DNA from: Candidatus Nomurabacteria bacterium GW2011_GWA1_36_15
GTDB taxonomy: Bacteria > Patescibacteriota > Minisyncoccia > Phycocordibacterales > UBA9973
DNA: 37,769 bases
Direction of reading: 5' to 3'
NCBI GenBank assembly: GCA_000991415.1
Contig: LBRM01000010.1
Span: 1-37,769, forward strand
In this document: positions 4,175 through 27,595 of the stretch, piece after piece
How positions within the stretch are numbered: position 1 is the first letter of the stretch
Layout of the letters: every line of letters begins with the position of its first letter
Notes under the pieces: generated by a model
What the model was told of the DNA's origin: nothing
The model's input: the letters and a program-made list of their open reading frames with translations, nothing else
The model's database searches: none
Translations under genes and position numbers: made by a program

Positions 4175-4294
4175 TTGTGGAAAGCAAACCAGTCGTTGCT
4201 GTTGCCAAAATTGCTCTGCCAATTGAGGTTGGACTTGCGCTTCGCATCGTTCCACCACACATTGCACGCGTTAGGATTGCTATCAAACGTATAT
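4175..4294 (-). repeat. DGR template repeat (TR)
   Basis: 120 bp aligned to VR 4658-4777 with 13 mismatches, all T on + strand (A on the minus sense strand). Confidence 0.95.
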
Positions 4295-4653: not shown

Positions 4654-5319
4654 TTACTTGCGGAAAGCAAACCAGTCGTAGCTGTAGCCAAAATAGCTCT
4701 GCCAATCGAGGTAGGACTTGCGCTCCGCATCGTGCCACCACACATCGCACGCGTTAGGATAGCTACCAAACGTACAACCAGTTGTTTCAACTACGTACAT
4801 TGGATTGGATCCAAGTTCATAATTGAGTTTTGGATAATTTTCTCCAATAGCAAATGGAACATGCGGGGTTGTTTTAAGAAGATTATTTGAGAGTCCCCAC
4901 TCTATTGCCTTTTGATAGTTTCCTCCACCGTTAGGCCAATTAAACAGAATAATAGTTTCAGTAGTTACTTTGTTTTCTGATGGTTGATATAAATCTGCCA
5001 CCTTGAGAACATTATAATTTGATTCTGTTTGTGGTCCACCTGTCATGGCAGCATCATTATGTGGTTTTGTATAATCCACTGACAAATTTGTGATTAGATG
5101 AATACGAGCGCCGATTTTTTTAGCTTCAGCTTGAAGATTTGTAAACCAGTTATCGGTGTTTAATCCATTAAAGAACTTGTCTGTTCTTTTTTTGTTTTTA
5201 AGAAAAGACACAAAATCTTCCCTCCTAACACCAAAATTTCTGGCAAGTCTTGCTAATTCCACGCCATGTTTATTCATAACGTGCTTTGCCGTTTTTTCCG
5301 GCTGCATAACGTTTTTCAT
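4654..5319 (-). CDS. DGR target (variable) protein, 221 aa; VR encodes the C-terminal ~40 aa
   Basis: C-terminus ...GCTFGSYPNACDVWWHDAERKSYLDWQSYFGYSYDWFAFRK versus TR translation TFDSNPNACNVWWNDAKRKSNLNWQSNFGNSNDWFAFHN. Confidence 0.9.
   Translation of the reverse strand: MKNVMQPEKTAKHVMNKHGVELARLARNFGVRREDFVSFLKNKKRTDKFFNGLNTDNWFTNLQAEAKKIGARIHLITNLSVDYTKPHNDAAMTGGPQTESNYNVLKVADLYQPSENKVTTETIILFNWPNGGGNYQKAIEWGLSNNLLKTTPHVPFAIGENYPKLNYELGSNPMYVVETTGCTFGSYPNACDVWWHDAERKSYLDWQSYFGYSYDWFAFRK
4658..4777 (-). repeat. DGR variable repeat (VR), 3' end of target gene
   Basis: Near-identical to TR at 4175-4294; adenine-specific differences; ends 4 nt inside the target ORF end. Confidence 0.95.
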
Positions 5320-6960: not shown

Positions 6961-6964
6961 TTAA

Positions 6965-7115
6965 AAAACAAAGAAATATAAAATTTATAAAGCAATCTAT
7001 CTGGCAAAGCTTTGCCAGCGAACTACTCGTCGTTCAAGAAAATAATAAATGGAGTACCATTTTTATTTTCTAAACTCCTGCGCAAGGCTTTCTAAATTTT
7101 ATATTTCTTTGTTTT
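6965..7115. other. Long-armed hairpin element between convergent mutM and trmH-family genes
   Basis: Arms 6965-6993 and 7087-7115, 28/29 complementary, enclosing 93 nt with its own inner hairpins. Confidence 0.8.
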
Positions 7116-7587
7116 ATAAATTCAAAATCCTAAACAAGGCCACCCCGCAAGTTACAGAAACATTTAGCGACTCTTTTTTGCCTCGCATTGGAATTTCGGC
7201 GATTATGTCACATTTTCGAAGTACATTTTTATGGATACCAACAACTTCTGCGCCTACGATAAAAGCATTTTTCTTCCCTAGTTTTATCTTTTTATAATCT
7301 AAAGAATTTTTCGTCTGTTCAATGCCAATAATCAAATACTTTTCTCGTTTTAGCTTATTAAGAAGAATGACTAAGTTTTTTTTATATTCCCAAAACACAA
7401 ATTTTTCCGCCCCAAGGGCAGATTTGGCCATATCTTTGCGGATTCTGCCAAAACGATCAAGCGGCGTCGGCGTATAGCCAGTCAAATAAATTTTATTTAT
7501 ACCTGCTGCATCAGCCGTCCGAAACATCGCGCCGACATTGGTCACGCTTCTGATATCATGAATAATTAATATATTTTTTGGTGACAT
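7114..7587 (-). CDS. TrmH/SpoU-family RNA 2'-O-methyltransferase
   Basis: NILIIHDIRSVTNVGAMFRTADAAGINKIYLTG...GAEVVGIHKNVLRKCDIIAEIPMRGKKESLNVSVTCGVALF. Confidence 0.88.
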   Translation of the reverse strand: MSPKNILIIHDIRSVTNVGAMFRTADAAGINKIYLTGYTPTPLDRFGRIRKDMAKSALGAEKFVFWEYKKNLVILLNKLKREKYLIIGIEQTKNSLDYKKIKLGKKNAFIVGAEVVGIHKNVLRKCDIIAEIPMRGKKESLNVSVTCGVALFRILNL

Positions 7588-8899: not shown

Positions 8900-8972
8900 T
8901 CCGCCCGCTCGGGATCGAACCGAGGACCTTCTCCTTAAAAGGGAGCTGCTCTACCAGCTGAGCTACGGGCGG
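8900..8972 (-). tRNA. tRNA-Lys (anticodon UUU)
   Basis: Minus strand CCGCCCG TA GCTC AGCTGGTA GAGC A GCTCC CTTTTAA GGAGA AGGTC CTCGG TTCGATC CCGAG CGGGCGG A; cloverleaf with TTT anticodon, CCA not encoded. Confidence 0.92.
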
Positions 8973-9051
8973 AGGTATTTTACTGTTACCTACCAAAACA
9001 GCTACGGGCGGAGGTATTTTACTGTTACCTACCAAAACAGCTACGGGCGGA
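8961..9051. repeat. 39-bp tandem repeat (2.3 copies) covering the tRNA-Lys 5' end and leader
   Basis: agctacgggcggaggtattttactgttacctaccaaaac starts at 8961 and 9000; partial third copy at 9039. Confidence 0.95.
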
Positions 9052-9073
9052 TATTGTTTATACTAACAGATTT

Positions 9074-14426: not shown

Positions 14427-14433
14427 TAAAAAA

Positions 14434-14575
14434 ACACTAATCTCTAAACAATCCTTTTGGAGCTAAGCCCCGAAAGTAACAAATCATTAAAGGATGGCCC
14501 CAGGAACCGATAAAGGCACCAGAACGTCCTATGCAAATTTGTATAACCGATGGCTGATTGCTTAGAGATTAGTGT
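14434..14575. other. Long-armed hairpin / candidate structured RNA between pilB-like gene and ruvB
   Basis: Arms 14434-14453 and 14556-14575 complementary at 19/20, A-run before and T-run after, 102-nt inner sequence. Confidence 0.75.
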
Positions 14576-14707
14576 CTTTTTAAAACAAAAAAGGCCTAAA
14601 CCTCCATTGCTGATTATACTATATTCCAAATCAAGCAAATGCTATAATGTTAATAGCAATGTTGATACTGTGTTGATAAATGTACTACTTGCACAGTATA
14701 GCATATT

Positions 14708-24210: not shown

Positions 24211-24534
24211 ATGCTTCCCAAAAAGAATAGATTGAGTAAGAAAACAATAGAGAAAATCTTTGAAGGGGGCAAATTTATTAATTCCCCCGACCTGACTTTG
24301 AAGTTTTTAGTTGTTCGCGGAAAAGAAAAACAGACGTCTTTCATTGTTCCTAAAAACATAGCCAGACTTGCTGTTAGAAGGAATTCTTTGAGAAGGAAAA
24401 GTGATATTATTTTAAGAAAATATTTTAATGAATTCCCCGCCGGTTTTCTAGGTGTTTTTATTTTTAAAAAATATCAAGATGACATTTTAATACTTGAAGA
24501 TGAAATTAAAAATATACTCAATAAAATTAATTAA
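24211..24534 (+). CDS. rnpA: Ribonuclease P protein component
   Basis: Position between rpmH and yidD; LPKKNRLSKKTIEKIFEGGK...NIARLAVRRNSLRRKSDIILRKYF. Confidence 0.85.
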   Translation: MLPKKNRLSKKTIEKIFEGGKFINSPDLTLKFLVVRGKEKQTSFIVPKNIARLAVRRNSLRRKSDIILRKYFNEFPAGFLGVFIFKKYQDDILILEDEIKNILNKIN

Positions 24535-24748
24535 TTTTTACCAAAAAACAATAGCTGTTCCGATTAATAAATTTTTGGAATATTTCGGCTTATTGAGGAA
24601 CAATTCTTGTGTTTTTTTCCCTACTTGTTCTGAATATACAAAGGAGGCCATAAAGAAATACGGTATTTGGGAAGGAATCTTTCTTGGATTTTTGCGCATC
24701 CTTCGTTGTCATCCTTGGCAGAAAAATCACATCGATTTGTTAAAATAA
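24494..24748 (+). CDS. yidD: Membrane protein insertion efficiency factor YidD
   Basis: CVFFPTCSEYTKEAIKKYGIWEGIFLGFLRILRCHPW. Confidence 0.92.
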   Translation: MKMKLKIYSIKLINFYQKTIAVPINKFLEYFGLLRNNSCVFFPTCSEYTKEAIKKYGIWEGIFLGFLRILRCHPWQKNHIDLLK

Positions 24749-24851
24749 AAAAGGGAACACTTTTTGTCGGTACGGATTTTTTGAAGCTTAAAAAATCCTG
24801 AAATTTTCGCGCCGTCGCGCTCAAAACCCCTTAAAAAGTGTTCCCTTTTTT
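24747..24851. other. Stem-enclosed 67-nt repeat element, copy 1
   Basis: Arms 24747-24765/24833-24851 (19 bp perfect) around core 24766-24832. Confidence 0.85.
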
Positions 24852-24901
24852 ATTTCCAATAGAGACTTTGATTTTTAAACATTTTCATATAGAATGAAAG
24901 A

Positions 24902-25642
24902 ATGCTTCAAAATATTTGGGACACCGTTTTATATGGGCCGCTTTTAAATGCTTTGGCCTTTTTGGTTTCTATTATTCCGGGTGGTGATATCGGTATCGCT
25001 GTTATTATTCTCACTCTTTTCGTTAAAACCGTACTCTTCCCTCTTTCTCAACGCTCTATAGAAAGTCAGATAAAGATGAATCTACTTGCCCCGGAACTTA
25101 AAAAAATAAAGGATAATGGGGCAAGCAAAGAGGAACAAGCAAAACAAACCTTTGAACTTTATAAACATCACAAAACCAATCCTTTCTCTGGATGTCTTTT
25201 GGTTTTGATTCAAATCCCGGTTATTTTTGCCCTATACTATGTTTTTTTGAAAGGGATAAATTTTGAAGGTGGTTTGCTTTATCCTTTCATTCGCATCCCA
25301 GAACATATGAATATGGTTTTCTTAGGTGTTCTTGATATCAGCCAGAAGAAAATTATAATCTTGGCAATTCTTGCCGGCTTATCCCAATATTTTCAGGCCT
25401 ATCTTATGCCCAAACCAGCCATTTCGGATAAACCCGCCACTTCTTTTCAGGAGAATTTTACCAAAAGTATGCAAACTCAAATGAAATACGTTTTTCCCCT
25501 GGTGGTGGCATTTATCGCTTATAGTGTTTCCGGGGCAGTTGCATTATATTGGATTACCAGCAATATCTTTGCCATAGGGCAACAGGTTTATGCGAACAGA
25601 AAAAAGAAATTAGCCCTTGAAGCGGTAAAACAACAAAACTGA
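24902..25642 (+). CDS. yidC: Membrane protein insertase YidC/Oxa1
   Basis: NPFSGCLLVLIQIPVIFALYYVF; C-terminal TM bundle; synteny with yidD and jag. Confidence 0.92.
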   Translation: MLQNIWDTVLYGPLLNALAFLVSIIPGGDIGIAVIILTLFVKTVLFPLSQRSIESQIKMNLLAPELKKIKDNGASKEEQAKQTFELYKHHKTNPFSGCLLVLIQIPVIFALYYVFLKGINFEGGLLYPFIRIPEHMNMVFLGVLDISQKKIIILAILAGLSQYFQAYLMPKPAISDKPATSFQENFTKSMQTQMKYVFPLVVAFIAYSVSGAVALYWITSNIFAIGQQVYANRKKKLALEAVKQQN

Positions 25643-25643
25643 T

Positions 25644-26171
25644 ATGAATAAATCAGAAATGCAAAATTTAATAAAAGAACTTATTGAAAAAACTACAATA
25701 TCTGTAAGTAAAATTTCTGTTGACGAAGATAAACCCACTTCTCTTCATTCAAACGCAAATAAAACTACTTGGTTTTCAGTAGAAGTAAGTCAGCCACATT
25801 TTTTTTGGGACCGTGGAGGCGAGGCTCTTTTTGCTGTAAACCACCTTGCTCGCAGAATAATTGAAGCTAAAACCCCCAAAGAAACAGAAAAATCAAACAA
25901 CCCTAAAGATACGCTTGCACAAGAAGGCTTGGGAATTCTAATTGATATTAATGGTTTTCAAAAAAAACATATAGAAAACATCCATGCCATAGCATATATG
26001 ATGGCTGAAAGGGCGAGATATTTTAAGTCAAATATAGAAATTGATCCAATGCCGGCTTTTGAGCGTAGAATAGTACACGAGTTTCTGTCTGATGTAGCTG
26101 ATTTAAAAACTGAATCACAGGGCGAGGGACTTTCTCGCCGGGTAGTTATTAAGTATATTGGGGCGATATAA
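25644..26171 (+). CDS. Jag/KhpB-like R3H-domain RNA-binding protein
   Basis: MPAFERRIVHEFLSDVADLKTESQGEGLSRRVVIKYI; follows yidC. Confidence 0.85.
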   Translation: MNKSEMQNLIKELIEKTTISVSKISVDEDKPTSLHSNANKTTWFSVEVSQPHFFWDRGGEALFAVNHLARRIIEAKTPKETEKSNNPKDTLAQEGLGILIDINGFQKKHIENIHAIAYMMAERARYFKSNIEIDPMPAFERRIVHEFLSDVADLKTESQGEGLSRRVVIKYIGAI

Positions 26172-26174
26172 AAC

Positions 26175-26277
26175 AGAAAAAGAACGATTTTAGTCGGTAC
26201 GGATTTTTTGAAGCTTAAAAAATCCTGAAGTTCTCGCGCCGTCGCGCTCGAAACCCCTTTAAAATCATTCTTTTTCT
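26175..26277. other. Stem-enclosed 67-nt repeat element, copy 2
   Basis: Arms 26175-26192/26260-26277 (17/18) around core 26193-26259, 64/67 identical to copy 1. Confidence 0.85.
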
Positions 26278-27595
26278 ATTTTAATTGCAGTTCCCAAAGA
26301 TAAGAATCTTTTTTATTTACAAAAAATAGGTAATTTTGTCCCCCATCTAAATTAAGTTTTATGCCATCTATCTCTTCTCCATTTTCTACTAAAACTGGAT
26401 CTGCTATCATTGTTGTGTTTCCGCTTTTGACATCTATTTTCCATATTTCATCCGAAAAAGAAATTTCTCCTTGATACCAAGAATCCGGATATTGAGCTTG
26501 CTCTATGAATCTCGGCACAGCGCAGTAGATAATATCACTTGCCGACCCCCCCCAGACACATTTTTCCGGCAAGGTCTTTACGCCGAGGAGATTTGAATTA
26601 CCCGTATCTCTATTGAAAACACTTAACGACAGATTATTGTTGCTATAAAGGACTATTCTTCCATTAGGGCTTGTGAGTGTTGTTAATCCATTTATCCCAC
26701 CTAGAATTTTATTAAAATCTTTTTTGTCCGGGTCAATTGCATACATATAACCCAAAACATTGGCAGAGGGTTTAGTTGTAATTGTAATCATTTTATTATT
26801 AGGCCAAGAAGACAGCCATTCTGTAAAAGGAGAATCAAACACTTGAACTCTTGCGTTCGTTTGTGGAACGAGGGTTATGCCCAGTGCGCCGTCTCCCACA
26901 TCAAATAAGTAAAATATTTTTGAAGTGTCTGGCGACACGCTTATATCAGAAATATTTTCTGGCAAAAAAGAACCCTTGATTTCATTTGTTCCCACAGAAT
27001 CTGATCCCAGGAATTCTTTTGGAAGAGCGCCAACGAAAGTTTCTATGGTTCTATTGTCTGTCTTTAAATAACGCATAATTACAGACTCCCCTTCGTTTCC
27101 GAAGAATGCTTCATATACTCTTGGTATTACTGATGAAGAAAATTTACGCTCGTCTATTTTGTCCGCGAAAGTCTGATAAATGTTTCCTGTAGCCTTATCT
27201 ACATACCTTAACATAGGCACAAATTCAGTCAGACCCCCTGAATCCCCTTTGGCAGGGGGAGTTAAATTATCCTCCTCCCCTGACACTTCTTTATATCTTT
27301 CTTTCATATATGTTCCATAACCTGCCACCGGGAAACTAGAAACCTTTTTTAAACTTACATTTTGCATTTCTTCTTCTGGGGCAGGCTCAAATCCAGAAAT
27401 ATCAGCCGGAGTCGTGGTGTCCGAAGGTGTTGCGGTTTTGCTTTTACCGAATGGAAGAAAATTTGCAAAAAAATTCGTGCCTTCTGTGTCATCTATTGTC
27501 TGCTCTTCGGGTTGATAAAAGTAAAAAAACACAAAAGCACCAGCTACTATGACCACTAGAACCATTATTAATAATATAAGATTTCTTTTTGACAT
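26276..27595 (-). CDS. Membrane-anchored hypothetical protein, possible beta-propeller-like ectodomain
   Basis: N-terminal TM then repeated strand-like segments; linked to the T4SS cluster. Confidence 0.55.
   Translation of the reverse strand: MSKRNLILLIMVLVVIVAGAFVFFYFYQPEEQTIDDTEGTNFFANFLPFGKSKTATPSDTTTPADISGFEPAPEEEMQNVSLKKVSSFPVAGYGTYMKERYKEVSGEEDNLTPPAKGDSGGLTEFVPMLRYVDKATGNIYQTFADKIDERKFSSSVIPRVYEAFFGNEGESVIMRYLKTDNRTIETFVGALPKEFLGSDSVGTNEIKGSFLPENISDISVSPDTSKIFYLFDVGDGALGITLVPQTNARVQVFDSPFTEWLSSWPNNKMITITTKPSANVLGYMYAIDPDKKDFNKILGGINGLTTLTSPNGRIVLYSNNNLSLSVFNRDTGNSNLLGVKTLPEKCVWGGSASDIIYCAVPRFIEQAQYPDSWYQGEISFSDEIWKIDVKSGNTTMIADPVLVENGEEIDGIKLNLDGGQNYLFFVNKKDSYLWELQLK

What the first reader, a model, noticed from the sequence alone, without database searches (positions are those of the whole stretch)
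24747..24851. Repeat core inside site-specific terminator stems: candidate new structured RNA family (copy 1)
Core GTCGGTACGGATTTTTTGAAGCTTAAAAAATCCTGAAATTTTCGCGCCGTCGCGCTCAAAACCCCTT (24766-24832) recurs at 26193-26259 with 64/67 identity. Flanking arms are unrelated between copies yet self-complementary in each (AAAAAAGGGAACACTTTTT/AAAAAGTGTTCCCTTTTTT here). Inside the core, T24806-A24823 is replaced by C-G in copy 2, a compensatory pair flanking GCGC-CGTC-GCGC; GGATTTTTT-gaagctt-AAAAAATCC forms another hairpin. A conserved core in a covarying terminator-like stem suggests an RNA element or a mobile element targeting terminator loops.
Basis: partly seen in the sequence, partly recalled or inferred. 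Interest (0 to 1): 0.78.

Follow-up and report, generated by a model that had tools for sequence, protein, structure and literature searches.

The report
Capped gene-end hairpin repeats in Nomurabacteria
Two near-identical 67-base folded caps on gene-specific hairpin stems belong to a previously uncatalogued family of repeats that sits at gene ends in many Nomurabacteria and some relatives; the stems differ from site to site and the cap often differs in orientation between species, a pattern that DNA copying errors at hairpins could explain.

Summary
The core (24766-24832) recurs at 26193-26259 (64/67) inside unrelated but self-complementary arms of 23-24 bp. It is one family: about 9 copies in this genome, 214 distinct copies extracted here, mostly from Ca. 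Nomurabacteria, patchily in related lineages, none found in viral contigs. More copies strengthen the structure: all 7 pairs of the second hairpin show two-sided changes, and arms pair best with their own partner in 130/130 copies. No Rfam family matches. Copies sit at gene 3' ends: median 1 nt from the stop codon, 56 convergent versus 9 divergent gene pairs. At orthologous sites related species have the cap, the cap reversed, a different cap, or nothing. Outer arms turn over while the cap stays. Cap-free palindromes are not the usual empty state, so 'insertion into existing terminator loops' is not supported. Best reading: a new variant of REP/MITE-like dispersed hairpin repeat that serves as a gene-end (terminator-like) hairpin, whose arms are re-templated and whose cap is flipped by replication template switching. 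Mobility, terminator activity and template switching are inferred; no mobilising enzyme was identified, and Y1/RAYT transposases do not track it.

The parts
24743..24765 (+). copy 1, 5' arm (23 nt), overlaps the yidD stop codon
   Evidence: long-hairpin scan; fold; YidD by Pfam
24766..24832 (+). copy 1, cap (67 nt): closing stem GGT 24769-24771 / ACC 24826-24828; H1 24774-24782/24790-24798; H2 24804-24806/24823-24825 and 24809-24812/24817-24820
   Evidence: alignment A1; pair counts
24833..24855 (+). copy 1, 3' arm, complementary to 24743-24765; yidC follows at 24902
26169..26192 (+). copy 2, 5' arm, starts at the stop codon of the R3H (Jag-like) gene 25644-26171
26193..26259 (+). copy 2, cap (64/67 identical to copy 1)
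26260..26283 (+). copy 2, 3' arm, overlaps the stop codon of the convergent gene 26276-27595
6961..7119 (.). third long gene-end hairpin of the window, different 93-nt cap, between mutM-like and SpoU-methylase-like genes; same architecture, not the same family
14427..14582 (.). fourth long gene-end hairpin, different 102-nt cap, directly after the T2SSE-family ATPase (pilB-like) stop; same architecture, not the same family

Best explanation
It is a dispersed, non-coding hairpin repeat of about 110-130 bp with three layers: a conserved cap (a junction of two hairpins closed by a short stem), a semi-conserved inner stem of about 12 bp, and a locus-specific outer stem of about 10-20 bp. Shown: the family, its structure, its gene-end position, filled/empty/reversed states at orthologous sites, and fast turnover of outer arms with pairing kept. 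Inferred: (1) it spreads as a REP/MITE-like element, by an unknown enzyme or by replication error; (2) once next to a stop codon it works as a two-way gene-end hairpin (termination or 3'-end protection), which is why it is kept there; (3) the outer arms are copied from one another by replication template switching between inverted repeats, which makes arms complementary whatever their sequence and sometimes inverts the spacer, that is the cap. Step 3 would explain, without any target-loop insertion, why arms are unrelated between copies yet self-complementary in each.
For: About 9 copies in own genome; 24 of 60 relatives; 23 of 387 genomes in the class and 9 of 384 in the phylum sample, patchy and often multi-copy. 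Caps are more alike within a genome than between genomes, 0.889 versus 0.807. Covariation exceeds all 500 shuffles on most measures. Own-arm duplexes -22.1 versus -6.1 kcal/mol against other copies' arms, 130/130. Stop codon to arm median 1 nt on both sides. Convergent 56 versus divergent 9, p=2e-9, background 82:62. 5' outer arms A-rich (0.47 A, 0.26 T), 3' outer arms T-rich. Orthologous sites filled, empty, reversed or carrying another cap. Outer-arm identity at orthologous sites 0.56-0.60 versus cap 0.82-0.88; same orientation 77/138. A bare 21-bp palindrome in G019 looks like an inverted copy of the neighbouring gene end. Template switching is reported to homogenise inverted-repeat arms and invert spacers (PMC8604942) and to create and maintain hairpins (PMC8794818).
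Against: No transposase, target duplication or pair of near-isogenic filled/empty genomes was found; the species compared are at most about 80-95% identical in flanking proteins, so intergenic DNA is too diverged to read the insertion junction. Many copies lie at sites shared between species, so part of the pattern may be old inheritance with loss. Arm complementarity could also be kept by selection for a hairpin. Reversed caps could be independent insertions. A sense bias (61:26, p=2e-4) is not predicted by free flipping alone. The simple terminator scan finds no classical terminator at these sites, and some copies lie in a 5' UTR (pnp).
Confidence: 0.5

Rival explanations
1. A true structured RNA element: the cap is read in the transcript (3' UTR) and bound by a protein or ligand, and the stem presents it.
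For: Strong covariation of H2 and of the closing stem in diverged subfamilies (sequences); sense orientation bias 61:26.
Against: Cap orientation differs in 61 of 138 orthologous pairs; the reverse-complement strand folds about 5 kcal/mol better in every gene context, including when it is not the strand transcribed with the upstream gene; many close relatives lack it entirely.
Confidence: 0.2
2. The cap (67 nt) is a mobile element that inserts into the loops of existing terminator palindromes.
For: Outer arms are locus-specific while cap and inner arms are conserved; a capless copy of one arm type exists; extra sequence inside the cap's own loops is seen (L005, L007, G428).
Against: Empty orthologous sites generally lack any long palindrome; all four long hairpins of the window have large loops and none has a short loop; inner arms, and in some lineages the whole arm, are shared between copies.
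Confidence: 0.12
3. Old vertically inherited gene-end terminators whose arms drift with compensatory changes, with loss in many species; no mobility.
For: Copies recur at the same sites (R3H/Jag 3' end, yidD-yidC, rny 3' end, gatC-gatA, NYN-pnp) in several species; NYN-pnp arms are nearly identical in G000, G033 and G027.
Against: Many different gene neighbours, patchy spread over many families with similar caps, genome-specific subfamilies, other cap families at the same site.
Confidence: 0.15

Closest known systems
MITE-like small mobile repeats (Correia/NEMIS, ERIC, RUP; review PMC2229807)
   Same: about 100-200 bp, non-coding, intergenic, AT-rich, long hairpins, dispersed copies
   Different: no conserved terminal repeat at the outer ends in Nomurabacteria, no target duplication seen, arms locus-specific, cap orientation differs between orthologous copies
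REP/BIME elements with RAYT (Y1) transposases (from general knowledge)
   Same: short palindromic intergenic repeats near gene 3' ends; Y1 proteins exist in many of these genomes
   Different: copy number does not follow Y1 genes: G022, G048 and G007 have many copies and no Y1 hit
Paired DNA uptake sequences acting as terminators (Haemophilus, Neisseria; from general knowledge)
   Same: repeat-derived hairpins at convergent gene ends
   Different: those are 10-12 bp words repeated many times in the arms; here the repeat is the cap and the arms are locus-specific
Template-switch-homogenised inverted repeats (PMC8604942, PMC8794818)
   Same: arms made complementary, spacer inverted
   Different: described there for short unrelated inverted repeats in yeast genes and for RNA genes, not for a dispersed repeat family with a conserved cap

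Membership tests
MITE | below about 200 bp, intergenic, AT-rich arms | tested here: met
MITE | conserved terminal inverted repeats | tested here: not met
   outer arms only 0.47 identical between random copies, 0.56-0.60 at orthologous sites; partly conserved in G428 and G237
MITE | target site duplication | tested here: inconclusive
   none visible, but filled/empty pairs are too diverged
MITE | a parent transposase with matching ends | not tested
   only the Y1_Tnp family was searched
REP/RAYT | co-occurrence with a Y1 (RAYT) transposase | tested here: not met
   many copies in G022, G048, G007 with no Y1 hit; 11 Y1 hits and no copy in G001
Intrinsic terminator | hairpin directly after the stop codon, U-rich 3' side | tested here: met
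   median 1 nt from stop; 3' outer arm 48% T, 5' outer arm 47% A
Intrinsic terminator | short GC-rich stem followed by a T run | tested here: not met
   no match in 24300-26800
Intrinsic terminator | ends transcription | not testable with these tools
   needs RNA 3'-end data
Any Rfam 15 RNA family | match at or near the gathering score | tested here: not met

The most novel reading that the evidence does not exclude
Capped palindromes are a general class in Nomurabacteria and relatives: several unrelated cap families, each on locus-specific arms at gene ends, spread by a hairpin-recognising system and remodelled by template switching, so that a genome-wide set of terminator-like hairpins is continually rewritten while the caps persist and flip.
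Probability: 0.25. Interest if true: 0.8.

Novelty: new variant of a known kind. Interest (0 to 1): 0.58.

Why it matters
It adds an uncatalogued, covarying repeat family to lineages with tiny genomes, and offers a natural series of sites where arm copying and cap inversion can be compared across species. It also cautions that covariation alone does not prove a functional RNA: a DNA-level copying mechanism can produce the same signal on either strand.

Tried and rejected
Rfam at gathering and at permissive E-values: no match to the element. Y1/RAYT as mobiliser: no correlation with copy number. Viral carriage: none by exact pattern in viral contigs. Caps B and C of the window as repeats: single copy in this genome. 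Target duplications: none readable. Widespread cap-free copies of one arm subtype: one case only. Literature searches for such repeats in CPR bacteria found nothing relevant; that library lacks most subscription journals. A first attempt to read the yidC upstream regions failed to orient the loci and was redone.

Full report
The 67-nt core at 24766-24832 recurs at 26193-26259 with 64 identities. Each core is enclosed by long arms that pair with each other but share little sequence between the two copies. Both hairpins fold far better than shuffled sequence. The window has only four hairpins of this stem length, all with large loops and all starting within a few bases of a stop codon: these two, and two with different caps at 6961-7119 and 14427-14582.

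It is a family. The own genome has about nine copies; 24 of 60 relatives have it, up to 15 or more copies each, including members of other families of the order. A covariance model from 32 copies finds it in 23 of 387 genomes of the class and 9 of 384 of the phylum sample, patchily (the two samples overlap). An exact pattern finds none in viral contigs. Rfam has no matching family.

Structure. The cap is a junction: closing stem GGT/ACC, hairpin H1 GGATTTTTT/AAAAAATCC, hairpin H2 with loop CGTC or similar. In 97 copies all seven H2 pairs show two-sided changes, for example columns 74/148: C-G 55, U-A 26, G-C 12; cells with two-sided changes are 179 against 66 in shuffles. The closing stem does not covary in close relatives but differs with pairing kept in diverged subfamilies (GGG/CCC, GAG/CTC, AAG/CTT; sequences). 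Arms pair best with their own partner in 130 of 130 copies, mean -22.1 against -6.1 kcal/mol with other copies' arms. One warning: the reverse-complement strand folds about 5 kcal/mol better on average, in every gene context, so the strand on which the structure matters is open.

Position. Among copies with clear neighbours, 56 lie between convergent genes, 9 between divergent ones, 61 along and 26 against two co-directional genes; the background in the same loci is 82 convergent to 62 divergent. The stop codon of a facing gene lies a median of 1 nt from the arm. The outer 5' arm is A-rich and the outer 3' arm T-rich, as in a two-way terminator, though the classical short terminator pattern is absent. 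Gene calls here are simple ORF calls and carry some error.

Orthologous sites. After the R3H (Jag-like) gene, the cap is present in G000, G022, G033 and G009, reversed in G012 and G004, replaced by other palindromes in G003, G013 and G028, and absent in several others. After rny, some species carry it in one orientation, some in the other, and one lacks it (rny is named from its C-terminal sequence, not by a family search). Between the NYN gene and pnp, three species carry it with nearly the same arms, one has another cap, and most have none. Over 138 orthologous pairs the cap is in the same orientation in 77; mean identity by flank-similarity bin is 0.82-0.88 for the cap, 0.60-0.86 for inner arms and 0.56-0.60 for outer arms; random copies give 0.82, 0.59 and 0.47. 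Caps are more alike within a genome than between genomes, 0.889 against 0.807.

Interpretation. Insertion of the cap into ready-made terminator loops would leave cap-free palindromes as the usual empty state; they are not, with one exception that could also be a cap loss. In some lineages (G428, G237) the arms are shared between copies, so they belong to the element. Template switching between inverted repeats is reported to homogenise arms and invert spacers (PMC8604942) and to create and maintain hairpin stems (PMC8794818). That matches three observations here: self-complementary but unrelated arms, reversed caps at the same site, and a bare palindrome in G019 that looks like an inverted copy of the adjacent gene end. 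It remains an inference; selection for hairpins and independent reinsertion could give parts of the pattern.

Other caps. In 621 kb of loci, nearly all chosen because they hold cap A, there are 107 long hairpins; 74 have loops of 25 nt or more, about 50 of them cap A, the rest small families or singletons. At least three further caps recur between genomes. In L288 one such hairpin sits within the remains of a cap A copy. This points to a wider class but was not pursued fully.

Comparison. It resembles MITEs and REP elements in size, place and copy number, but lacks conserved outer ends, has no visible target duplication and does not follow Y1 transposase genes. I therefore call it a new variant of dispersed palindromic repeats rather than a member of either family.

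Noticed in passing
L006 about 1381-1470 and the same place in relatives: Conserved hairpin-like leader between the NYN-domain gene and pnp (GTTAATCGGTTCG...TTCGGACA...GGAACAATACTG.AGTCTGAACACGAACT); candidate autoregulatory pnp leader.
   Followed up: no
   Followed up: partly
L045 2252-2351, L012 124-217, L019 341-432 (CCTGCGCCCTTC...GTGGGACCCTCGG); L007 2350-2445, L254, L269 (GAGCCTTCGCCCTCGG...GACTCTT); L246, L288: At least three other recurrent cap families on locus-specific arms in Nomurabacteria.
   Followed up: partly
L288: A hairpin of another cap family lies within the remains of a cap A element.
   Followed up: no
window 8951-9067: Three tandem 39-nt copies of part of the tRNA-Lys gene region.
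   Followed up: no
window 4175-4291 and 4658-4774: 117-nt direct repeat, 91% identical, 483 nt apart.
   Followed up: no
L005, L007, G428:C10:7030-7174: Copies with extra sequence of roughly 27-50 nt in the H1 loop, between H1 and H2, or in the H2 loop.
   Followed up: no
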